This document shows positions 7,200-55,975 of a stretch of DNA of 64,000 bases, piece by piece (position 1 is the first letter of the stretch; every line of letters starts with the position of its first letter). The notes under the pieces were generated by a model. The model saw only the letters and a program-made list of their open reading frames with translations. It had not been told where the DNA came from and searched no databases. A program made the position numbers and the translations under genes. This DNA is from Toxonevra muliebris (taxonomy: Eukaryota; Arthropoda; Insecta; Diptera; Pallopteridae), in contig OY829327.1 of NCBI GenBank assembly GCA_963691655.1, positions 83,774,019-83,838,018 on the forward strand, written 5' to 3'.

Positions 7200-7409
7200 A
7201 ATATGTAGTATTAAGTAGCAAATAGTAATTATATGCATATTTGCTGTAGTCAGAGCATGTAGCGCTGGGTTTGTCGAGTTACGTTCAAGATCAGTACTGT
7301 GGCTAATATGTAGTATTAAGTAGCAAATAGTAATTATATGCATATTTGCTGTAGTCAGAGCATGTAGCGCTGGGTTTGTCGAGTTACGTTCAAGATCAGT
7401 ACTGTGGCT
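7200..7409. repeat. 105-bp perfect tandem duplication
   Basis: Two head-to-tail copies, 7200-7304 and 7305-7409, appear identical by eye. The unit contains AGCGCTGGGTTTGTCGAG. Because 105 is divisible by three it creates a spurious repetitive minus-strand frame (7197-7517). The second copy ends exactly at the TA that flanks the neighbouring MITE. Confidence 0.9.
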
Positions 7410-7410
7410 A

Positions 7411-8057
7411 AGGGCGATATCACATTGGCAAGAGTTGTCGCAGAGACAAATGTGTTCCATTCGTGTTTTATTTTTTAAGCGGCTGTCGAGGGACACACTC
7501 AGGCCAGAATGGCCCATTGTGGTACCACATGCTTAGAGACGCAATGTTTAGAGGTCGCGCATCGGGTTTTTATGTTTCCCATATAAATAACACAGAGATT
7601 TCGTTCTGTAAAATTATAATTTTTTTTCTATCTTTTGGACCATAGTGCATTGGCCTACCAAGGTGTGTACTTGGTATAATTTTTATAATTCTCATACACT
7701 TCATATCGATAGTGGATATGAAGGTTATGAGAATTAACCGCCAGATCAAGACAGGATTCGATCCCGAACCTCCCGGGTGAAAATCTAGAGCACTAACCAC
7801 TAGACTATCGAGGTCGTCTAGTCCTTTGGTATATCACACTAAAGCGACAAGTGTTCCAGTACTTTTCTCATTTTTCTACAGTTGCCATTTTTGTACTTTT
7901 CTGTACAACTATTTGTACTATTGTATTATACTAACTGAACTGAAGTAAAAGAAAATAAATTATAGCGTGGCTTTTGCAGAATTAAAAAAATTGTATATAG
8001 GAAATAACAAAATTTCTGTCTCCTCAGCGACAAATGTTGCCAATGTGATACCGCCCT
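7411..8057. mobile_element. Tc1/mariner-type MITE carrying a SINE
   Basis: The left end reads AGGGCGATATCACATTGG and the right end is its complement with one mismatch, giving about 21-bp inverted repeats. Both ends are flanked by TA (7409-7410 and 8058-8059), the target of Tc1/mariner transposases. The interior contains a tRNA-derived SINE (7481-7818). No transposase is encoded. The frames at 7463-7645 and 7570-7800 are repeat sequence. Confidence 0.8.
7481..7818 (-). mobile_element. tRNA-derived SINE, copy 1
   Basis: Read on the minus strand from 7818, the head resembles a tRNA-Glu-like sequence. It has an A box TAGTCTAGTGG (7797-7807), a TTTTCACCC anticodon-loop-like segment and a B box region GGTTCGGGATCGAATCC (7754-7770). 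The body matches the second copy at 60943-61247, including the GTACTTGGT and CTGTCGAG segments. As a tRNA pseudogene it would be a remnant RNA polymerase III promoter. It sits inside the mariner-type MITE, so it arrived later than the MITE or was captured by it. Confidence 0.75.
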
Positions 8058-17037: not shown

Positions 17038-20000
17038 CTAACATTCATATTCTAATATGAAGGTTTCACGTTCGCTGATAAATGTTGGATGCTGTTGCTG
17101 CCGATTTTGATGCTGTGCTGTTGATATGCTGGAGGCTGAGATTGTGGTTGCTGGTGATGATGATGACAACAACAACGATGTTGGTGGCTGCATATTTGCT
17201 GTTATTGAAATTTGATCTAAATTCGTTTGTGATGACAAAGTTGGAGCGGAGGAATGTGCGAGTTGTGATAGCGAAAATTTACTATTTGCTGTTGCCGCTG
17301 TACCGCCAGAGGCAACAGCATTGCCCGCGGTTGTTGTAGTGGAAGATGATGATGAGGAACAAGTGGATGATGAGGAATAAGATGAGGTGGTTGATGATGA
17401 GTTGGTATGATAGGAATATGGCTCTACACCAGCAACACCAACAGAGGGAGGTAGGCTACCGACGGCAGCACCCATGCCGTAATAGTTAAGCGTTGTAATG
17501 AGTGGTGCACCCGGAGCAGCAGGTGAGATAGCAATGTGACGTTGTTTTTGTTGCTGATGATGGCATTTATGTTGTTGCAACAACTGATGTTGTTGATGGT
17601 GTTGATGATACGTGGGCGTTTTTTGCTGTTTGTATGCGTTGGCGGCAGTGCGTTTTGCAGTGTTTTTTAAATCAGTGGCTTGTAAGGGGATTGTTGGTGT
17701 GGAAGTTGTCATTTCTGATGCATTCCCAACAATAACAATACTATCGTTTGGTGTTTGTGCCGGTGGTGGTGCATTATTGCGTATTGCAATGAAGGCGTCG
17801 AAATTATCTGAGGACGAAGTATTCGATGTGGTTGAGTTACGACGTGTATAATAATTGCTGATGCTGTGTGAAGAAGATTGTTGCAGTTGCAAGTATTTGT
17901 ATTGTGTGGGTGCGCTGCTGGTGGTTAAATTTAGTTTTGGTTGTTGCTGCTTCTGGTTGGTGTGTGACATCGACGAAGTCGATGATGAGGATGTCGATAG
18001 TGATGAAGAATTTAAAGAATTTGCGGTCGGATGTTGTTGTTGCTGGTAACAGTATTTGCGTAGATTTTCCAGAATGTAGCGATTATTTGCGGTTGCCACA
18101 TTGTTGACAACTGCATCATTGTTTGCGGATTTGTAGTGTTTACTACTGCTGCTGCTGTCGACAGAAGTAGCCGCAGCAAGCATGGCGCCCGATTCTCGAT
18201 TTGATGACAACATGGAATTTTTTGTTGGCACTGCATCCATTACATCCAATGCTGTTGTTGTTATTGCTGGCGCGAAAGGCATTATTTGAATTGCTGAAGT
18301 GTTTTTCGCTTTCGTAGCACCAATATTTGCCTGTGTTGTTACATTATCCTCAACAATGTAACGGTTTCCTTTATTGTTGCCAACACTGGTAGAGCCATTA
18401 ACACCAACTGTACTACCAGAAGCGATTGTCAACGAAGCGTCAAATAGCTGTTCTGAAATTACATTCCTTTTCGTTGTTGTTGTTTTTCGCATGGTTGATG
18501 AAGATGATGATGTTCTCGCCGATAATGTTGAATTTGTCGTCGTTGCTGTTGGTGTCGGTATCATTATCAATGTCGAAAAATTCTGACGTTGTTGGTGTTC
18601 CTGCTGCTGCTTCTTTTGTATACAGTCGTCTGCATAATGTTGATGCTGTTGTTGTTGCCGTGCAAACGTAGTTCCTTCCTTTATTGCTCGCAGCGACGAT
18701 GAGGCTACCGCTACTCTACTGCCACTTGCGAATGCCACAGCTGGTTCCATTAAATGGTTGGGGCATGGTTTTGATGACAATGTTGCTTCAAGCTGTAATG
18801 TACTCAGCAATTTGATGTTATCATCATCAATGTGATCTGCATTAATGCTACCAATGATGTTGTTTTCATCTTCTTCATGTTGTGCTTTGGTTGGCAAACT
18901 ATTGCCACCAAAGCCATAAAACTCGTGCGCGTCGCAATATGTCGTTGGATCTTTTCCTGTCTCTAACGCTGCAGTAGCTTCATAGCGATTGCGAAAATTA
19001 TGCGCCGCTGTAACATTAATTTGCGTCGAAGGAGCAACATCAGCTCCAGCGCCTAAGATGGCAGTTTGCCACAAATCAAAGCCTTCGCTGTAATCGCGCT
19101 CGTTATCATACTCGTCATCGTTGATTGAGTTGGCAGGAGATTTGCCTTTGTGCCGACGGTGAAAGTGTTCCAAGTAGTTTTCGAATTTCAATTTGTTTTT
19201 TTCCTCCTTTGTACTCTCATCGTCACCGTCAATTTGCTGCTGCTGCTGCAAATGCTGATTGAGCGAGCGATAAAAATTGCTCTCGGCTAAATTTTCATTA
19301 TATTCAAGGAAATTTCTGCGTTCATCATGATTATGCTGTAGTTGTTGATGCCACCACCAATCAGACGTAGTGGAAGCGTCTGGAAATTGATGTTCTTGCT
19401 TTTGCTGTTGGAAATCAATGTCGTGTTCGTTTTCTGCTTTGTTGATGAGCATACGCCGTATGCCCTCATCCAAATTGAATGAATGCGTATAATCAGCTTC
19501 ATTGTCATCAGTACCAGCGTCTCCACGGCTGGAAAACAAATTTGTCTCCTTGCCACTATCTGCAAATAAGATTTCTTTTTCTTGGGAATCTTCCAAATCT
19601 AGTGGAGGGAAACTTTCCAAATTACCGAAACAATACAGTGACATTTTGGGATGCTCATACCGTAATTTGGCCGCTTCTTCCTCTTCACAATTAAAGATAG
19701 TTTTTGGGCTCACAGCGTTGGCCCGCGAATGATCAGTGGAATTGGTTGTCGGTCCGCTGAATACGGAGGCGTAGTCAGAGCTGCTCAATGAGTCTGAATA
19801 AACATTACGCACCGTAGTGGGTGCACAATGACCTTGAGCAGTTGGGAGAGGCGTTCCGGGGTTGGCATAGTTCGTTGTAACTGCTTGCTTCTTATTTACA
19901 GTGGTTACAACTTTATTAGCGGACAGGCTTCGCTTGTGAGTTCTCATCGTCTGTTGCTCATGCCCTTCGTTCGACTGATGCAATAGCTCATGCTGTCGTG

Positions 20001-22431
20001 CAATTCGTCCACCCGCAGCCCTTCCTACCGAATGCGGCTCTTTTGATTTTTTTATCTCCTTCTGTTTCTTGTCAAAATTCTCTTCGAGATATGCGTCTAA
20101 ATAATGAAGATTTCTGGAAAGATCTATTTCAGACTTATAACTCTTGTAGATCGTTGCCTGCGGCTTACCTGCGGCGGCTGCGGCGGCAGCATTTACTGCT
20201 CCACATTGCGACTCATAGCTGTTGATATGCGCACGGTCGCTAATAAAGCGAAAGCTATCGTCCTTTGTTAGTGGGTTGAAGCCACTCGACGAAGAGGATG
20301 ATTCATGCGCGCCTCCTTGTTGCTTAAAGTTACGACGACATTTGTTACGTATCTTTTGGAACCCTTGCTTAGTTTTGGTCTGCAAACGTTCGAAATACGA
20401 CGGTGACGAATGGTTCTTCGATGACTGATTGTGAACAGCGTTGATCGCTGCTTGAAAAGAATGCGTTTGTTGCTCGTTGGTGCCACCGGTGCTGGTGCAG
20501 CTTCGCATGCTGTGAATGCTCTGAGTGCGATTTGGATACGTGATTTTTAATTTCTTCAACTGCGGCAATGCGGTACTTAAGTCTCTGCTTAGTGGTGGAG
20601 GCATCATTGTACCACTTGTCGTTGACTTATGTAATTTGCGTAGTGATAAATTTTTGAAAACGAACTTTGATTTTTTGCCAGACTTGCTGCCTTCTCTTAA
20701 AGTCATGGCATTACTTATGGAGTTGCTAAAATCCTGACGCTCAAATCGACTCATTGGTGGCATACCACCGTATAGATAATGATGCTGCTCCTGCATAAAT
20801 TGTCGCTTCTGCTGCTGATCCGACGCATCAAAGAGACGGCGTATGGAGCGCTCCGAACGATGGTGACGCTTTCTAGTCGATGCTGTATGGGAACTGTGCA
20901 AAGAAGCAGAACCAGTAATAGAAGTTGCTGTTCCCAAATGTGTATTTACACTTAGTGTGAGAATATCGTCGTCGTCGTGAAATATAGAAAAGGGATTAGT
21001 GATGACGGTGCTGTTGTCGTTATTACTGTCGATGGGATAACGCTGAGGCAAAAAATAGTTTCGCTTTCGATTGCTGTTGTTGTTGTTATTGTTCAGAGCA
21101 GCATCAACCACTGATGCCGTTATCCGCTCCGCCTTCGTTGTCGTTTCACTACTAGAGGGCATTATGTCTAAACTACTTAAAGATCTAGGCTTACATGCTA
21201 GCATTGACTTAGAATCTAATACAACTACAACGTTACCATCAGGCGCTGTCATTTTGACGGCTATTTCACCTTCACTCTCACGCTTTAGGTGCGAGCAGCG
21301 ATTTCCAATTAATATGTCCGTATCGGATTTTATTTTGCGTATGCATCGTTTTCCGCCCCGTATACCGTGACGCATCTCTTTCAGCGATATCGATTGCTTG
21401 CGGAAGCAATAAAATGGATTGTTTATACTTAACTTCTGTAGAAGCTCGCGACAATCTGTCGCGTCTTCGTCTTTATCGTAACTTTCGTTCCGCCAATGTA
21501 AAACGAATGACGAATCATTCATCTGCTTTAAATTATGACCCCCCTTCATTAATTGTAACTTATCATCATTATTACTGCTATTACTCCTTGTGCTACTGCG
21601 CTTATTGTCATTATTGTCATTGGACGACAGTTCTTTGGTAGTTATTTCAAAAAATGTTGGCCTGCTATTTTTCTCATTTGTCGCACTGTCAAGTGTTACA
21701 TTTAAATTTAAGCATTTGCTATTCGTACGCTTTACACAGTCCATATTATTCTCCCCTTCTATGCTTCTCATCCTATCATTCTTATTTTTATTTTTGTTAC
21801 TGTTGTTGTTGTTGTTAATATTTTTATTATTACTACTACTATTGCTATTGCTACTACTATTCGTTTGTGTGTTCGTACTTAAACTATTGGAGCTGTCTCT
21901 GCTGTTGCTACTTGTAATGCTGCACTGATTTTGATTTTCATTATGTTTAGTTTTGTTTTTGGTTTTTGTTGCATTTGTGTTTGTTGTATTTTTGGTTGTA
22001 GTTAAGGTCTTTGACTTAAGCGTTTTTTTATAACTATAGTCCTTCTTTTCTTCATCTATGTCATTGTTTGCTGTTTCTATTTTCGTATCGCTATCGTTTC
22101 CGTTCTCGTCGTCTTTATCATTTTCATTTTCACTACTACTGCTATAACTACTACTGACCGTTATTGTTGTTGTTGTTGTATTTTTCAATTCGCTTACATT
22201 GCCACTGCTTTTTGTTCTTATTTTGTCTGTCTTCGTCATCGTCGTCGTCGTCGTCATCGTTGCCGTATTTGTGGTACTAATTTCGGCACCACTTTTGTTT
22301 TCATCGTCATCCTTTTCATTTTGTGTTTGTGTCTCTACGTCTTCTTCATTGTTACCATTTTCGATTGCTGTTGTTGTATTTATATTTAACGTGTTATTGT
22401 TATTAGTCGTGGCGTTATTATTAATTGCCTG
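17038..22431 (-). CDS. 1797-codon in-frame extension of the five-Ig protein, after a TAG
   Basis: The frame continues directly from the TAG at 22434-22432 with Gln-Ala-Ile-Asn and stays open for 1797 codons to TAG at 17040-17038. The first in-frame ATG is only at codon 59 (22257). The 58 codons before it have the same Asn/Thr/acidic composition as the rest, so the frame does not look as if it starts at that ATG. The product is cytoplasmic if made by readthrough. It is mostly low-complexity (runs of Ser, Asn, Thr, Gln, a run of seven Ala), with more ordered-looking islands. Examples are the Cys- and Arg-rich stretch at about 21516-21165 (...FVLHWRNES... to ...LSSLDIM), a basic segment KSKFVFKNLSLRKLHKS near 20670, and a stretch near 20180-20050 (ATIYKSYKSEIDLSRN). 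It ends in ...FILEYEC. I see no catalytic domain or second membrane helix. It is probably a disordered signalling scaffold. It could instead be reached by splicing or RNA editing, or be an independent gene (less likely). Confidence 0.75.
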   Translation of the reverse strand, partial: QAINNNATTNNNNTLNINTTTAIENGNNEEDVETQTQNEKDDDENKSGAEISTTNTATMTTTTTMTKTDKIRTKSSGNVSELKNTTTTTITVSSSYSSSSENENDKDDENGNDSDTKIETANNDIDEEKKDYSYKKTLKSKTLTTTKNTTNTNATKTKNKTKHNENQNQCSITSSNSRDSSNSLSTNTQTNSSSNSNSSSNNKNINNNNNSNKNKNKNDRMRSIEGENNMDCVKRTNSKCLNLNVTLDSATNEKNSRPTFFEITTKELSSNDNNDNKRSSTRSNSSNNDDKLQLMKGGHNLKQMNDSSFVLHWRNESYDKDEDATDCRELLQKLSINNPFYCFRKQSISLKEMRHGIRGGKRCIRKIKSDTDILIGNRCSHLKRESEGEIAVKMTAPDGNVVVVLDSKSMLACKPRSLSSLDIMPSSSETTTKAERITASVVDAALNNNNNNSNRKRNYFLPQRYPIDSNNDNSTVITNPFSIFHDDDDILTLSVNTHLGTATSITGSASLHSSHTASTRKRHHRSERSIRRLFDASDQQQKRQFMQEQHHYLYGGMPPMSRFERQDFSNSISNAMTLREGSKSGKKSKFVFKNLSLRKLHKSTTSGTMMPPPLSRDLSTALPQLKKLKITYPNRTQSIHSMRSCTSTGGTNEQQTHSFQAAINAVHNQSSKNHSSPSYFERLQTKTKQGFQKIRNKCRRNFKQQGGAHESSSSSSGFNPLTKDDSFRFISDRAHINSYESQCGAVNAAAAAAAGKPQATIYKSYKSEIDLSRNLHYLDAYLEENFDKKQKEIKKSKEPHSVGRAAGGRIARQHELLHQSNEGHEQQTMRTHKRSLSANKVVTTVNKKQAVTTNYANPGTPLPTAQGHCAPTTVRNVYSDSLSSSDYASVFSGPTTNSTDHSRANAVSPKTIFNCEEEEAAKLRYEHPKMSLYCFGNLESFPPLDLEDSQEKEILFADSGKETNLFSSRGDAGTDDNEADYTHSFNLDEGIRRMLINKAENEHDIDFQQQKQEHQFPDASTTSDWWWHQQLQHNHDERRNFLEYNENLAESNFYRSLNQHLQQQQQIDGDDESTKEEKNKLKFENYLEHFHRRHKGKSPANSINDDEYDNERDYSEGFDLWQTAILGAGADVAPSTQINVTAAHNFRNRYEATAALETGKDPTTYCDAHEFYGFGGNSLPTKAQHEEDENNIIGSINADHIDDDNIKLLSTLQLEATLSSKPCPNHLMEPAVAFASGSRVAVASSSLRAIKEGTTFARQQQQHQHYADDCIQKKQQQEHQQRQNFSTLIMIPTPTATTTNSTLSARTSSSSSTMRKTTTTKRNVISEQLFDASLTIASGSTVGVNGSTSVGNNKGNRYIVEDNVTTQANIGATKAKNTSAIQIMPFAPAITTTALDVMDAVPTKNSMLSSNRESGAMLAAATSVDSSSSSKHYKSANNDAVVNNVATANNRYILENLRKYCYQQQQHPTANSLNSSSLSTSSSSTSSMSHTNQKQQQPKLNLTTSSAPTQYKYLQLQQSSSHSISNYYTRRNSTTSNTSSSDNFDAFIAIRNNAPPPAQTPNDSIVIVGNASEMTTSTPTIPLQATDLKNTAKRTAANAYKQQKTPTYHQHHQQHQLLQQHKCHHQQQKQRHIAISPAAPGAPLITTLNYYGMGAAVGSLPPSVGVAGVEPYSYHTNSSSTTSSYSSSSTCSSSSSSTTTTAGNAVASGGTAATANSKFSLSQLAHSSAPTLSSQTNLDQISITANMQPPTSLLLSSSSPATTISASSISTAQHQNRQQQHPTFISERETFILEYEC

Positions 22432-22434
22432 CTA
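22426..22434 (-). promoter_or_regulatory. Candidate leaky stop: TAG-CAG-GCA
   Basis: The stop codon is TAG at 22434-22432, followed by CAG GCA. The hexamer after the stop fits CAR-NBA, the generalised form of the tobacco-mosaic-virus type readthrough context (UAG-CAR-YYA being the strict form; here the fourth base is G, not a pyrimidine). Stop-codon readthrough of hundreds of genes is established in Drosophila. The long open frame behind this stop is what makes the context meaningful. Confidence 0.65.
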
Positions 22435-22642
22435 GACCCTAGTAGGCGGCTGTAATATCATTGCAGCCATTCGTACCTTCATTGCTTCGGGTGATCCATG
22501 GCCAACGGGATGCGGATGCTGCTGATGCGGATGATGTTGCTGTTGTTGATGATGAAATCCGGCTGGTGTGGTATAAATTGAATCACCTTGAGGCCCACCA
22601 CCACTTGTGCTATCGGAGCGTGACTTCAAATCAGCCTTTTCG
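22435..22642 (-). CDS. Five-Ig adhesion protein, last exon, short-form C-terminus
   Basis: The exon begins after the acceptor ...GCTAG at 22642. Its first base completes a Ser codon from the 34-nt exon upstream. It encodes visible residues 572-641: a Ser/Lys/Asp-rich start, QGDSIYTTPAGF (a possible tyrosine-phosphorylation site), a His/Gln-rich stretch, and the end AAMILQPPTRV. The terminal T-R-V is a class I PDZ-domain ligand (S/T-x-hydrophobic), as is common in cell-recognition receptors. The exon does not end at the stop but runs on into the 1797-codon extension. Internal AAG|GTACGA, 48 nt before ...TCTAGCAG, is a possible tiny optional intron. Confidence 0.9.
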
Positions 22643-26883: not shown

Positions 26884-26997
26884 CCTTGAAACAGCATTTT
26901 TTGCTACGTATCGCATAAATGCAGAGGCAAATTAATATTAAAATGGCGGTCAAGCAACCGCCAGCTATACCAAGCAAGTAGCTCATCTCCAAAGGTT
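26884..26997 (-). CDS. Five-Ig adhesion protein, transmembrane exon
   Basis: Acceptor ACGCAG before 26997 and donor GTAAGT after 26884. The exon encodes visible residues 523-560. After EPLEM comes one hydrophobic helix of about 24 residues (529-552, SYLLGIAGGCLTAILILI continuing to ...CIYAI), then a basic stop-transfer RSKK and a Cys-Cys pair (KKCCFKG) typical of juxtamembrane palmitoylation. This fixes the topology: Ig domains outside, the 34-nt and last exons inside. The phase-1 boundaries match both neighbours. The frame running into 27067 uses intron sequence and should not be taken as exon. Confidence 0.9.
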
Positions 26998-27958
26998 CTG
27001 CGTATGTGGAGGAAGTGTGGCGTAAAGCGGTGCAATCCGTTGGTGGCGTTGATGATGGAGGCAGCAAATTCCAGGATTGTTTTCAATGTTGGGTAATTTC
27101 AACATTGAGTGGTTGGCATTCATTTGTTTGTTTTTTTGTTTTTGGTGTTGTCATGTACGATTAAAGTTCAAAAGAGAAGATAAAAATTGTATGCATTAAA
27201 AAATTTATAAAGTTTACATATTCAATCACGGAATTATGAAATACACATGCACACACATATGTCCACATATTTATATACAAACATACATACAAACAGTTGA
27301 AAGAGTACATTTATAATTTGACAGTAGACTCTCATATATGAAGCATGCAACACACTATAAAGGGCTTAAAGTATTTTGCTACTTAATTCATTATGCATTA
27401 CAGGTTTACTTAATTCTTTTCGGAAAGCAAAAGAAAAAATTTATTAATTAAAATTAAATTCAACGTGAAATTGTAACTTAACTGAATTTTTTATGAAATA
27501 GATATACATATACATATATGTATGTAAATGGAAATTAAATTGGTGGCGAGAAATAGCTGCTTTAGCAAATTTTGTCTTAATTGCATGCACACAAACATCA
27601 TGCCACACATATATACACAAGCACACAAGCTGTACGTATGTGACAATGCCAAATCCAAAATTAATTTATGCAAATTAAATTAAATTCAATTAATAAATTA
27701 TTTCAATTGATAAGTATTGATTCACAATTGAGAAGTGCGTAAGGAAGAAGTGAGTGGGTGAGGGGAAGTAAGAAATGTGGAATTGGTAGTGTACATAAAT
27801 TAAACACATATTAGTTGAAATGATATTGGATTTCTGTACAAACAGATGAACAGATAAACAGAGCACACTCGCACACACACAAACGTGTGTGTGTGTGTGC
27901 GTCAATTACATGCGGGCTCAACAAAATAAACAAAATAGCTCTGCACCTGCAAACGTAC
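26998..27958 (-). other. Intron, 0.96 kb
   Basis: Donor GTACGT at 27958. It holds (GT)n/(CA)n microsatellite near 27870-27900; no gene. Confidence 0.8.
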
Positions 27959-28123
27959 CCTCCACATTTAAATGAATAGCGTGACGATCGGTGCCACGTT
28001 CATTCTCGACAACTAAGTAATATGGACGTGAATCGTGCTCGTCGGTGCGCAGTATGTGTAGCGTGGATAGATAGCAGTCTTCGCGTGAATCCTGAAGCAC
28101 ATCATCTGCATGGAAACGGTCTG
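27959..28123 (-). CDS. Five-Ig adhesion protein, Ig5 second half
   Basis: Starts after TTGCAG (28123) and ends before donor GTACGT. It encodes visible residues 468-522, including RFHADDVLQDSREDC, YLSTLHILRTDEHDSRPYY and LVVENERGTDRHAIHLNVE. This is the C-terminal half of the membrane-proximal Ig domain. The usual Tyr-x-Cys of the F strand reads Tyr-Tyr-Leu here, while a Cys occurs earlier (EDCYLS). The acceptor is a NAGNAG (TTGCAGCAG), so the Ala-Asp at the junction could be shortened to Asp (start at 28120) by one residue. Confidence 0.88.
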
Positions 28124-31984: not shown

Positions 31985-32140
31985 CGATTGCAGATCCAGC
32001 TTCCAAACGCAATGAGCCCCATTCCCAGGCAACTCGATGCGGGTGCGGATCAGCGCATACAACCAAAGTCAAACTGGCGGGCTCACCACGTTTTACCGAC
32101 ACCGTATGCATTGAAGAATGACGTAAAACTTGAGGAGCAC
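31985..32140 (-). CDS. Five-Ig adhesion protein, Ig5 first half
   Basis: Acceptor TTTTCAG before 32140, donor GTGAGT after 31985. Visible residues 416-467: APQVLRHSSMHTVSVKRG, then LTLVVCADPHPHRVAWEWGS and LRLEAG. The Cys (B strand) and the Trp of AWEW (C strand) of an Ig fold are both present. The AWEW pattern with a following Leu-Glu-x-Gly recalls the fifth Ig domain of Kirrel proteins. The exon joins Gly (split) from Ig4 to this domain. The longer frame from 32435 runs through intron and is not exon. Confidence 0.9.
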
Positions 32141-34275: not shown

Positions 34276-34439
34276 CAACAACTTGCAGTGAAATTGGTTC
34301 CGAAACAGCCACACGCTCTTGTCCATTGATGTAGCTGGTTGCGCGACATTCATACTCCCCCTGATAATCATAGGTGACATTGTCGATGACGAGTCGTGGC
34401 TCATTGCCGCGTTCAACGAGTTTCGAACCATGTGATGTT
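34276..34439 (-). CDS. Five-Ig adhesion protein, Ig4 second half
   Basis: Acceptor CTTTTTAG before 34439, donor GTAAGT after 34276. Visible residues 361-415: TSHGSKLVERGNEPRLVIDN, then VTYDYQGEYECRATSYINGQ and ERVAVSEPISLQVVG. The D-x-G-x-Y-x-C F-strand motif (YQGEYEC) is canonical. It contains one N-glycosylation sequon (NVTY). The adjoining intron codons read as open frame (34106-34275) but follow a clear donor. Confidence 0.9.
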
Positions 34440-39776: not shown

Positions 39777-39897
39777 CTTTGGATCCATTTGTATGTTGGC
39801 ATCGGGTTGCCATCGGCGGCACATTCGAATGCGGCGGGACTAAATAGGGGCGCTGTCGTCAGACGATCTGGACCGGCAGAAATAATTTTTGGTGGAT
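39777..39897 (-). CDS. Five-Ig adhesion protein, Ig4 first half
   Basis: Acceptor CTCCACAG before 39897, donor GTAAGC after 39777. Visible residues 321-360: PPKIISAGPDRLTTAPLFSP, AAFECAADGNPMPTYKWIQR. The B-strand Cys (FEC) and C-strand Trp (YKW) are canonical, with the Pro-rich turn GNPMP between them. The intron to the next upstream exon is only 75 nt (39898-39972), typical of a compact fly intron. Confidence 0.92.
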
Positions 39898-39972: not shown

Positions 39973-40084
39973 ACTTCACATCCAATTGCACCGAAAGTTG
40001 TTCTGATGTACCAACAGAATTTTGAGCTTGGCAGGTGTATAGCCCAGCATCACGACGACCAACTGGACGCAGTTGCAGTGTTTC
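39973..40084 (-). CDS. Five-Ig adhesion protein, Ig3 second half
   Basis: Acceptor GCCGCAG before 40084, donor GTAAGT after 39973. Visible residues 284-320: ETLQLRPVGRRDAGLYTCQA then QNSVGTSEQLSVQLDVK. The canonical R-D-A-G-x-Y-x-C motif of an I-set or C2-type Ig domain is intact. The final T and the AT from the next exon make the Tyr of the linker KYPPKI. Confidence 0.92.
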
Positions 40085-40377: not shown

Positions 40378-40526
40378 CTGCAAACTGGCAATTTCCGAGC
40401 GCCCTGCGCGTCGCCAAACGATACTTGCTGGTGGATTGGCATCAGCAACACAACGCAGTATAAGCGCATCCTTATCCTCTTCCAAGTCGATTTCCGGTGA
40501 ACCAATTAGACGAATGGTTGGAGCGT
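40378..40526 (-). CDS. Five-Ig adhesion protein, Ig3 first half
   Basis: Acceptor GTTACAG before 40526, donor GTAAGT after 40378. Visible residues 234-283: APTIRLIGSPEIDLEEDKDA, LILRCVADANPPASIVWRRA, GRSEIASLQ. The Cys of LRC and Trp of VWR are in the right places, with the DANPP turn common to Ig domains of the nephrin/Kirrel class. The plus-strand frames across this region are shadows. Confidence 0.92.
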
Positions 40527-40954: not shown

Positions 40955-41149
40955 ATTTAATATCCAGACGCGCTTCCACCGGCACAGATTTCACTGAATA
41001 TGATTCGTGAAAAGCCAAGCAGCGTAATATATCACCATGACGTTCCCTCATTGCGGTCGCCTGAACCACCGATGTGGCAGACCAAGTTCGCGCATTATCC
41101 GGCTCGGTTGAGTTTGTTTGCGGATGTATGGGAGCCATTTCCTGGTCAC
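40955..41149 (-). CDS. Five-Ig adhesion protein, Ig2 second half
   Basis: Acceptor TTCGTAG before 41149, donor GTAAGA after 40955. Visible residues 169-233: GDQEMAPIHPQTNSTEPDNA to HGDILRCLAFHESYSVKSVP and VEARLDIK. The second Ig cysteine is in DILRC. It contains a sequon (TNST). The longer frame down to 40719 is intron read-through after a clean donor. Confidence 0.9.
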
Positions 41150-41437: not shown

Positions 41438-41581
41438 CCAAATACCATTTAAGCGTCGCCGGCGGATTACCATAGTGGGAGACACATTTTACAGTTGCTA
41501 AGGCACCCGAGTCAACAGTTATGTTGTGACCAGGAGGAACATGAACACCTTCATACTCCAAACGAGGGCGTTGCGGCGCCA
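41438..41581 (-). CDS. Five-Ig adhesion protein, Ig2 first half
   Basis: Acceptor TGTTTCAG before 41581, donor GTAAGA after 41438. Visible residues 121-168: VAPQRPRLEYEGVHVPPGHN, ITVDSGALATVKCVSHYGNP, PATLKWYL. The B-strand Cys (VKC) and C-strand Trp (LKW) are present, with a sequon at HNIT. The linker RVAPQRP joins it to Ig1. It was recovered from splice sites and phase because it is too short for a long open frame. Confidence 0.9.
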
Positions 41582-42364: not shown

Positions 42365-42599
42365 CACGTACAACCAATCGCACCGGTTGACTGGTTAGCG
42401 CATCCTGTGTTGTAAAATCACTCGCTGTCACCTGACATTCCCAGAGACCATCATCGAAATCCAATGTGGCCGACCGTATCCACAGTGAACAGTCGCCACC
42501 GATTTGCATCGGTGGCGGATGCAGGTCCAAATGTAAACCGCTGCTTCCGCTGGAAGGACGTGCTGCCCACTCGTATTTCTTGGCATAGATACCGACAGG
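42365..42599 (-). CDS. Five-Ig adhesion protein, Ig1 second half
   Basis: Acceptor TTCTCACAG before 42599, donor GTAAGT after 42365. Visible residues 43-120: PVGIYAKKYEWAARPSSGSS, GLHLDLHPPPMQIGGDCSLW, IRSATLDFDDGLWECQVTAS, DFTTQDALTSQPVRLVVR. The V-set-like L-D-F-D-D-G-x-W-x-C motif carries the second Ig cysteine. The first domain of Rst/Kirre proteins is also V-type and mediates homophilic or heterophilic trans-binding; by analogy this is the likely ligand-binding domain. Confidence 0.92.
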
Positions 42600-53002: not shown

Positions 53003-53130
53003 CTTGTTATCCTTTTGCCATGAGCATGTTCCACGCTTATCGATTACTTTGCATGTTAATAATGCGTCCTGACCCGGATTCACTTCGGTATACTTGGGCT
53101 GTTCCGAGAATCTTTGAAAGCAATTTATTC
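53003..53130 (-). CDS. Five-Ig adhesion protein, Ig1 first half, first exon found
   Basis: Acceptor AATTCCAG before 53130, donor GTAATT after 53003. Reading in phase gives visible residues 1-42, INCFQRFSEQPKYTEVNPGQ, DALLTCKVIDKRGTCSWQKD, NK. The first Ig cysteine (LTC) and the Trp of CSW are in place, and an extra Cys precedes the Trp. The text E-x-P-x-Y-x-x-V-N-P-G-Q is a typical Ig A-strand start. This exon expects one base from the preceding exon to complete its first codon. That exon, with the signal peptide and ATG, is not identified. Confidence 0.85.
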
Positions 53131-53839: not shown

Positions 53840-55975
53840 AAACTATGAGGCCGAAATTTTTTTCATTCGATAAGAGAATATTTTTTAATCAGATTCAAGT
53901 TTGCTATTCCTCTCTCGAAAAAAGTTTACAAACTGCCATGGTATTCCAGAGACCTAAAGAAGCTCAAAAATCTAAGAAATAAGTATTACAATAAATTCAG
54001 GTCTACTAATATTCCGATTTTCAAGTTACAGTACGAGTTTTATATGAAGGAATTTAATTTTTTAAACAGATTTCTATGTAGGAATTATATCCTTAATTAT
54101 GAAGCTAACTTGAAATCCAATCTTAAAGCTTTCTGGCGTTTTATTAATTCAAAAAAATCTTCTTCAGATTTTCCTTCGTCAGTCTTTTTAAACGATAGGT
54201 GTGCGAACTCATCAGTGGAAATTTCTAAACTGTTTGCTGACTTCATTTGTTCAAATTTTGTTTCTGGCTCTGATTTGACTGTTGCGAGTGATTCCCCTCA
54301 AAACTCGGTATCATCAGTTAATTTTGGTTCACTCCCTCTCTCTTTGAATGACATCTATAAAGGTATCCTTAATATAAAACCTTCGTTCCAAGCTGATGCT
54401 AATAGTCTTGCTCCTGCTTTATTAAAAAAATGTACATCGCTAATTCAACCGTTGATGTTTATTTTTAATAAATCGCTTTCTTCTGGAGTTTTCATTGACG
54501 TATGGAAAGTTGCTTCGATTACTCCCATTTTTAAGAGTGGCAATAAAAAAAATCTAGCTAACTATAGGCCGATTTCCAAATTATCCACGGTTTCTAAGTT
54601 GTTTGAGTCCATTGTTAAAGAGAAACTTTATTTTGCCTTTAAGAGCTTGATCTGTCCTCATCAGCATGGTTTCGCTCCGGGTCGATCCACTATTTCCAAT
54701 TTAGCAATCTTCACTGATGATTGTATTGGAGCACTTCATTGTAGATTCCAAGTAGATGTTGTCTATACTGACTTCTCCAAAGCCTTCGACAAGATTAGTC
54801 ATAATATTCTTATTTCTAAACTGTCGAGCTTTGGATGCCACTCTATCTTTTTAGAGTGGATTAAATCTTTCCTGAGTAACCGCCTTTATATGGTTGAACT
54901 TGATGGTGTCTCTTCTCAACCTTTTACGGCATCTTCAGGAGTTCCTCAAGGCAGCATTTTAGGTCCATTGTTATTGATTCTTTTCATTAATTAGTTCTTG
55001 TTTTCCTCAGTGAAATATTTGCTTTATGCCGACTACCTTAAGATGTACTCTATCATTAAATGTCCTTTAGATTCTCAGATTCTTCAATCTGAACTCGATA
55101 ATGTTTATTCTTGGTGTGACAAAAATTCTCTGTCTTTGAATATTAATAAATATTTCCATTTGGCTTTCTCCAAATCACATACTTTACTGTCTACATCCTA
55201 ACGCATTGCTGCCACTTTGCTGGAAACTGTTGATGAAATTTCTGATCTAGGAGTAATTTTTGACCCTAAATTTACTTTTGTTAGTCATATAAACACTATA
55301 ATTAGGTCTTATTCAATGTTGGTTTTTATCCGCTGTAACAGTCAAGAGTTTTCTGACCCTTATACGCTCAAACTTCTTCACACCTCTTTCGTACGCTCCA
55401 AATTAGAGTATGCTGCTTTTATTTGGAGGCCTTATCACGCTTGTCACATTCTTCGTCTTGAACTCATTCAAAAGGTTTTTATGCGTTCTGCTCTTCGTTC
55501 TTTGAATTTCTCTGAACCAATTCCTTCATATACCTCTCGTTGCTTGCTTTTAGATTTAAAATCGCTGCAGAGTAGAAGGTCAGCCCTGTCTGTGTCATTC
55601 ATTCATGACGTCATAAATGGTGCTGTTAACTATCTCTCCCTTCTCGAGCGAGTTGCTTTTAATATCCCGGCTAGAAATCTTCGAGGGTTTGACATTTTTT
55701 ATATTGGCCATCATAGACCTAACTATGCTGTAAATTCTCATATTGTGAGAGCTTTAATCCAGCTCAACTTTATCGCACAATCGTCTGATAATGATTTTGC
55801 TAGTTCTAAATCTTCTTTTAAAGCTATTCTTAAGACTAGCTCCTTGTAATTAACTTATGTATAACTAACCCTTTAATATTTAATTTTGTTTTTTAGTCTG
55901 TAAGAATTTTTGTTTGTCAGAATTTTAGTCTGTAAGAATTTTGTATTCATAGACTAAGTTATTAAATAAATAAAT
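53840..55975 (+). pseudogene. 5'-truncated non-LTR retrotransposon, RT pseudogene
   Basis: Frames 54044-54994, 54998-55201 and 55217-55849 read as one reverse transcriptase broken by stops and shifts. In-frame sequence before 54044 (KLPWYSRDLKKLKN) shows that the ATG there is internal. Visible RT blocks are the YTDFSKAFDKISHN block with the first catalytic Asp, GVPQGSILGP, and LLYADYLKMYS. The last should be Y-A-D-D, but the second Asp is Tyr. The C-terminal region has FVRSKLEYAAFIWRPYHAC, common in Jockey/CR1-like elements. No endonuclease domain is present. It ends in an A-rich tail with AATAAATAAATA at about 55965. It is not autonomous. Confidence 0.85.

What the first reader, a model, noticed from the sequence alone, without database searches (positions are those of the whole stretch)
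17038..22642. Five-Ig adhesion receptor with a 1797-codon open frame behind a single leaky-looking TAG
Seen directly: the last exon reaches TAG at 22434-22432 after ...PPTRV, then the same frame remains open for 1797 codons to 17038. The 58 codons between the TAG and the first ATG carry the same composition as the rest. The context TAG-CAG-GCA fits the CAR-NBA readthrough consensus. Readthrough is well established in flies, but an extension nearly three times longer than the visible short form (641 residues) would be exceptional. The result would be a receptor that toggles between a short tail with a PDZ ligand and a giant disordered cytoplasmic scaffold.
Basis: partly seen in the sequence, partly recalled or inferred. 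Interest (0 to 1): 0.93.

Follow-up and report, generated by a model that had tools for sequence, protein, structure and literature searches.

The report
Giant receptor tail behind a stop
A fly cell-adhesion receptor gene carries a second, much longer tail-coding stretch directly behind its stop codon, probably reached when some ribosomes ignore that stop; it would be an unusually large example of something already known in flies.

Summary
The last exon of a Roughest/Kirre-like five-Ig receptor ends SPEAMK-VRMAAMILQPPTRV-TAG, and the same frame stays open for 1797 codons. The stop is real: 14 of 126 fetched relatives end at the same PPTRV. The downstream frame is a real dipteran protein: 28 relatives, annotated as separate proteins in drosophilids and tephritids but fused to the receptor in four lower-Diptera models. 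In one, Ochlerotatus, the model runs PPTRV-Y-tail, with a sense codon where the stop would be.

UAG readthrough is the best-supported route but is not shown. Removal of a 48-nt intron is therefore a live rival, though its pyrimidine tract is poor and it lacks a branch-point match. Either route gives the same two receptors: a short PDZ-ligand tail or a giant disordered tail. Fly readthrough extensions of more than 1000 residues are already annotated (PMC4528330, passages), so this is an extreme member of a known kind. No genomic DNA of relatives could be read; conservation of the TAG codon itself is untested.

The parts
53003..53130 (-). receptor exon, start of Ig1 (first exon found; signal-peptide exon not found)
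   Evidence: AG/GT borders and frame
42365..42599 (-). receptor exon, Ig1
41438..41581 (-). receptor exon, Ig2
40955..41149 (-). receptor exon, Ig2
40378..40526 (-). receptor exon, Ig3
39973..40084 (-). receptor exon, Ig3
39777..39897 (-). receptor exon, Ig4
34276..34439 (-). receptor exon, Ig4
31985..32140 (-). receptor exon, Ig5
27947..28120 (-). receptor exon, Ig5
26884..26997 (-). receptor exon with the transmembrane helix
   Evidence: TM helix in the model of relative P0029
23541..23574 (-). receptor exon, juxtamembrane (34 nt)
22435..22642 (-). last receptor exon up to the stop, ends VRMAAMILQPPTRV (PDZ-type C-terminus)
   Evidence: same ending in 14 of 126 relatives
22471..22479 (-). 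splice-donor-like AAG|GTACGA inside the exon (intron side begins 22476)
   Evidence: scores 8.5, the gene's own donors -2.5 to 11.6; relatives switch tails at AMK
22432..22434 (-). TAG stop, followed by CAG GCA (22431-22426)
22429..22476 (-). candidate 48-nt intron of the rival explanation
   Evidence: acceptor score 4.9; pyrimidine fraction 0.5 and no YTNAY match
22255..22257 (-). first in-frame ATG behind the stop (codon 59)
21742..21744 (-). ATG at the place where drosophilid models start the tail as a separate protein
17041..22431 (-). giant tail frame, 1797 codons, mostly predicted disordered, ends FILEYEC
20074..20148 (-). most conserved tail block YKSYKSEIDLSRNLHYLDAYLEENF
19750..19797 (-). 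conserved tail block SDSLSSSDYASVFSGP
21382..21444 (-). tail block LLQKLSINNPFYCFRKQSISL
17038..17040 (-). second stop, TAG

Best explanation
One gene and one mRNA encode two receptors. Most ribosomes stop at the UAG (inferred) and make a Roughest/Kirre-like five-Ig receptor whose short cytoplasmic tail ends in a PDZ-type ligand, PPTRV. A fraction read the UAG as an amino acid (inferred) and go on through 1797 codons. This adds a giant, mostly disordered tail with conserved short blocks, buries the PDZ ligand inside the chain and ends in EYEC; the tail probably serves as a docking scaffold (inferred). Shown here: exons, stop, open frame, conservation of the short C-terminus and of the tail, and fused gene models in relatives. 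Not shown: translation of the stop, its rate or regulation, and the tail's function.
For: Stop conserved as a C-terminus in 14 of 126 relatives, so it is not an error. The tail frame's nearest upstream in-frame stop is exactly this TAG, and the first 100 and 200 codons behind it are open beyond chance. Tail blocks align in 13 dipteran tails, window included. Four lower-Diptera models join receptor and tail; in Ochlerotatus the frame runs PPTRV-Y-tail without a gap. The 19 drosophilid tail models are all stand-alone and no fused drosophilid model appeared, as expected if a stop and no standard intron separate the parts. C follows the UAG; a C behind the stop counts as a sign of readthrough (PMC5100048, section 5 part 1). 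Conserved residues lie before the drosophilid start Met, against an independent start.
Against: No RNA, ribosome or peptide data. A good donor lies 42 nt before the stop, and three of the four fused models jump from AMK to the tail instead of reading through. A CAG acceptor-like site sits directly behind the stop. The 58 codons behind the stop are low-complexity and only weakly distinguished from chance (P = 0.017). No significant RNA structure behind the stop; an 8-bp hairpin over the stop is matched by 26 of 200 shuffles. The Tyr in P0151 rests on one gene model. TAG conservation at DNA level is untested.
Confidence: 0.6

Rival explanations
1. A 48-nt intron inside the last exon (22476-22429) is spliced in some transcripts, joining PEAMK to AINNN in frame and removing VRMAAMILQPPTRV, the stop and one Gln. 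Retention gives the short receptor, splicing the giant one.
For: Donor AAG|GTACGA scores 8.5, like the gene's own donors, and relatives switch to other tails at this point. CTAGCAG|G is the best acceptor-like site in the first 900 nt in the right phase (4.9). The length is divisible by three. Models of Hermetia, An. farauti and Polypedilum jump from AMK to the tail. A minimum intron near 45 nt is stated for Drosophila (PMC2767349, passage).
Against: Pyrimidine fraction 0.5 against 0.55-0.90 in the gene's 12 placed introns, no YTNAY branch-point match, and the shortest of those introns is 75 nt. At least 15 of 349 AGs in the scanned stretch score as well. The 19 drosophilid tail models are not fused. 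In P0151 the residues after the Tyr (Asn-Gly) leave no TAGCAG site there.
Confidence: 0.22
2. The tail is an independent protein started at a downstream ATG (22257, or 21744 as in drosophilid annotation) from its own promoter or a two-cistron mRNA.
For: Annotated as a separate protein in 19 drosophilids and 3 tephritids; D. jambulina has receptor and tail under consecutive locus numbers. The Met at 21744 is shared with drosophilids.
Against: The frame is open for 229 codons before 21744 and 58 before 22257. Residues just before the drosophilid Met are shared by this window, P0021 and P0023, and P0001 and P0002 have Ile in its place. Four models are fused to the receptor.
Confidence: 0.1
3. A-to-I RNA editing turns the UAG into UGG (Trp) in some transcripts, joining the frames.
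For: UAG can be edited to UGG (recalled, not from a call). A short hairpin covers the stop.
Against: The hairpin has only 8 pairs and is matched by 26 of 200 shuffles. Nothing else here tests it.
Confidence: 0.03

Closest known systems
Conserved stop-codon readthrough genes of flies and mosquitoes (328 FlyBase genes in PMC4528330; 353 A. gambiae and 333 D. melanogaster candidates in PMC5100048)
   Same: An open frame directly behind a conserved C-terminus, C behind the stop, and a long low-complexity extension with conserved patches; PMC4528330 describes long extensions that way, up to more than 1000 residues (passages).
   Different: The extension is 2.8 times the visible receptor part; no significant RNA structure behind the stop; a splice donor lies just before the stop. 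Whether this gene is already on those lists could not be checked.
drifter/vvl (dfr) UAG readthrough in Drosophila (PMC13170385, passages)
   Same: A UAG with a leaky downstream context in a fly gene; there the UAG is read as Gln.
   Different: dfr depends on a stem-loop behind the stop; none stands out here. dfr is a transcription factor, this is a receptor.
Roughest/Kirre/SYG-1/Kirrel cell-recognition receptors
   Same: Five Ig domains, one TM helix, PDZ-type C-terminus; Ig1-2 match solved Roughest and SYG-1; NCBI names many relatives kin of IRRE-like or irregular chiasm C-roughest.
   Different: The giant tail, which among the 126 receptor relatives was seen in 4, all Diptera.
Exitrons (introns inside protein-coding exons)
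   Same: Donor and acceptor inside one coding exon, length divisible by three.
   Different: When retained it carries a stop codon, which the definition in PMC10985678 (start of abstract) excludes; weak acceptor and no branch-point match.

Membership tests
Fly stop-codon readthrough | open frame directly behind the stop, in frame with the receptor | tested here: met
Fly stop-codon readthrough | stop conserved across relatives | tested here: inconclusive
   C-terminus conserved in 14 of 126 relatives, one relative with Tyr instead; DNA of relatives not readable
Fly stop-codon readthrough | protein-like conservation behind the stop | tested here: inconclusive
   met for the tail as a whole; the first 58 codons are low-complexity
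Fly stop-codon readthrough | leaky context (C behind the stop) | tested here: met
   TAG CAG GCA; sign named in PMC5100048
Fly stop-codon readthrough | RNA structure behind the stop (found in some cases only) | tested here: not met
   z -0.4 to 0.8 in three folds; hairpin over the stop not significant
Fly stop-codon readthrough | splicing and downstream start excluded | tested here: inconclusive
Fly stop-codon readthrough | translation past the stop seen | not testable with these tools
   no ribosome or peptide data
Roughest/Kirre family | five Ig domains and one TM helix | tested here: met
   model of the 91%-identical Musca relative P0029; Ig families in the window protein
Roughest/Kirre family | Ig1-2 resemble solved Roughest/SYG-1 | tested here: met
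   E 4.5e-11 and 8.1e-12; other Ig proteins score higher over Ig3-4
Roughest/Kirre family | place in a family tree | not tested
   no tree built
Exitron | retained form has no stop | tested here: not met
   TAG inside the stretch; definition from start of an abstract
Exitron | spliced form seen in RNA | not testable with these tools
   no RNA reads

The most novel reading that the evidence does not exclude
A Diptera-wide recoding switch: the receptor's giant tail is kept behind a leaky UAG in most flies, is joined permanently by loss of the stop in at least one mosquito, and turns a PDZ-anchored adhesion receptor into a scaffold. It would be among the longest translated readthrough extensions, the hidden part nearly three times the visible one.
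Probability: 0.4. Interest if true: 0.65.

Novelty: new member of a known kind. Interest (0 to 1): 0.52.

Why it matters
If read through, most of this receptor is missing from its annotation and sits in databases as stand-alone, misleadingly named serine-rich proteins. It would be a clean case of a deeply conserved tail toggled at the ribosome, with a mosquito apparently locked in the long form. If it is spliced instead, the same two receptors exist, and a fly intron of 48 nt would be notable in itself.

Tried and rejected
Known domain in the tail: no Pfam family. Other tail exons of relatives inside the window downstream of 22476: none found by tblastn with 12 of 13 chosen relatives (one, P0057, could not be cut at the motif) or by short motifs; short exons could be missed. 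RNA structure behind the stop: nothing significant. Signal-peptide exon: no convincing candidate. D. melanogaster gene name: I recalled CG45263 as a possible match; two papers' passages describe it only as an Ig-domain or expressed gene and nothing links it to this sequence. Error in the TAG: unlikely. Already on a list? Searches listed no paper on readthrough of this receptor, but the 2011 list paper is not held and supplements could not be read, so it may be listed; the FlyBase extension above 1000 residues could even be this gene.

Full report
Observation. The last receptor exon (from 22642, minus strand) reads GSPEAMKVRMAAMILQPPTRV and stops at TAG 22434-22432; CAG GCA follows and the frame stays open for 1797 codons to TAG 17040-17038. 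The other sense frames hold 90 and 174 stops; 100 shuffles average 87. Close behind the stop the evidence is weaker: P(no stop) is 0.017 for 58 codons, 0.0006 for 100, and 0 of 5000 shuffles for 200. So translation must enter this frame within roughly the first 60 to 100 codons. The entries I see there are the stop itself, an acceptor-like AG three bases behind it (22428), and the ATG at 22257.

The receptor. Thirteen exons join into one frame, 644 residues from the second coding exon to the stop. Pfam finds Ig domains. The model of the Musca relative P0029 (91% identical over 94% of the query) shows five Ig domains, a TM helix and a disordered tail. Foldseek returns multi-Ig adhesion proteins, with a SYG-2 chain at rank 21 (chain name). 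Ig1-2 match solved Roughest and SYG-1, though other Ig proteins score higher over Ig3-4. Many relatives are named kin of IRRE-like or irregular chiasm C-roughest. I call it Roughest/Kirre-like; no tree was built.

The stop is real. I held 126 receptor relatives: the best 120 of 204 listed, five more, and Hermetia P0028. Of these 54 carry the AMK motif, 14 end in PPTRV, and one more (P0151) contains it and goes on. The 14 are seven Diptera (Musca, Glossina, Episyrphus, Drosophila, Anopheles, Bradysia, Diamesa), five named others (Tribolium, Harmonia, Cryptolaemus, the stick insect Bacillus rossius, Cimex) and two unnamed. The other relatives end differently or lack the motif.

A missed feature. 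AAG|GTACGA right before VRMAAM scores 8.5 as a donor; the gene's own donors score -2.5 to 11.6. Relatives switch at AMK to other tails: 22 of the 54 end in AEI or AEL (83 to 742 residues, and 1472 in Polypedilum, which also contains the giant tail) and 9 have a short PVL-x-x-F tail. I did not find those exons in the window.

The tail. A search with tail residues 250-1797 gave 28 proteins: 19 drosophilids (1049-1205 residues), 3 tephritids (1726-1829), a syrphid, 4 without names, and Hermetia, where the tail is fused to the Ig receptor. Some bear names such as serine-rich adhesin for platelets-like. D. jambulina has receptor and tail under consecutive locus numbers. A search with the long form, scored on the receptor part at E 1e-100, gave 7 proteins: 4 carry this tail (Hermetia, Ochlerotatus camptorhynchus, Anopheles farauti, Polypedilum), 2 tephritids carry another long tail, 1 is a fish hemicentin. 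Conserved blocks align in 13 chosen tails, window included, though some blocks are absent in the mosquitoes or Hermetia. YKSYKSE and SSDYASV occur in 31 of 154 fetched proteins; all named ones are Diptera. A 581-residue piece is predicted mostly disordered (mean pLDDT 47.7) with a few helices.

How the parts join. In P0151 the model runs PPTRV-Y-NGSTSPK without a gap; in P0028, P0152 and P0153 it jumps from AMK to the tail. I read the jumps as predictors stepping over a stop, but a real mini-intron would look the same. Here the candidate is 22476-22429, 48 nt. Its acceptor scores 4.9 (the gene's own -2.5 to 13.3) and at least 15 of 349 AGs in the scanned stretch score as well. Its pyrimidine fraction is 0.5 against 0.55-0.90 in 12 placed introns, it has no YTNAY match, and the shortest placed intron is 75 nt. 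A minimum near 45 nt is stated for Drosophila (PMC2767349, passage), so length alone does not exclude it.

Independent start. Drosophilid tail models start at MNRE, MNCE, MDCE and the like; this window has MDC at 21744. The residues before it are shared (ENN here, in P0021 and P0023; TNN in P0001 and P0002), and P0001 and P0002 have Ile instead of Met; P0003, P0004, P0008 and P0026 gave no clear match there. The frame is open for 229 codons before that ATG.

RNA structure. Three folds at or behind the stop give z from -0.41 to 0.78. An 8-bp hairpin covers the stop (-9.2 kcal/mol) but 26 of 200 shuffles fold as well; the 60-nt stretch around it has z -1.65, matched by 12 of 200.

Known cases. 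Passages of PMC4528330: 328 FlyBase genes with readthrough, extensions from 4 to more than 1000 residues, many long ones low-complexity with conserved patches. Section 5 (first part) and passages of PMC5100048: C behind the stop is a sign; splicing and downstream ATGs must be excluded. Passages of PMC4999894: a few extensions exceed their proteins. Passages of PMC13170385: a fly UAG read as Gln and helped by a stem-loop.

Verdict. Confirmed observation. Readthrough is likeliest (0.6), a 48-nt intron the main rival (0.22), an independent start 0.1, editing 0.03. The first two give the same two receptors. The kind is known; the size, the conservation across Diptera and the mosquito with a sense codon make it worth an experiment.

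Noticed in passing
53849-55846 (+): A broken retroelement in the receptor's intron: reverse transcriptase frame 53849-54991 (Pfam RVT_1, E 1.1e-22), with a further open frame at 55202-55846 that has no Pfam match.
   Followed up: partly
7200-7411: Perfect tandem duplication of a 105-bp unit, two copies, 100% matches.
   Followed up: no
relatives P0039, P0041, P0043, P0149, P0150, P0153: Several Diptera have another long receptor tail from the same AMK junction, with DLFSG and SQSF(I/V) motifs and an AEI or AEL end; the Polypedilum model chains both long tails.
   Followed up: partly
P0001, P0008 (relatives of 22431-17041): Tephritid tails carry automatic names such as pneumococcal serine-rich repeat protein-like and serine-rich adhesin for platelets-like, although they look like receptor tails.
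   Followed up: no
22440-22426 (-): A short hairpin, GCCU-A-CUAG-GGU-CUAG-C-AGGC, has the stop in its 3' arm; 26 of 200 shuffles fold as well.
   Followed up: partly
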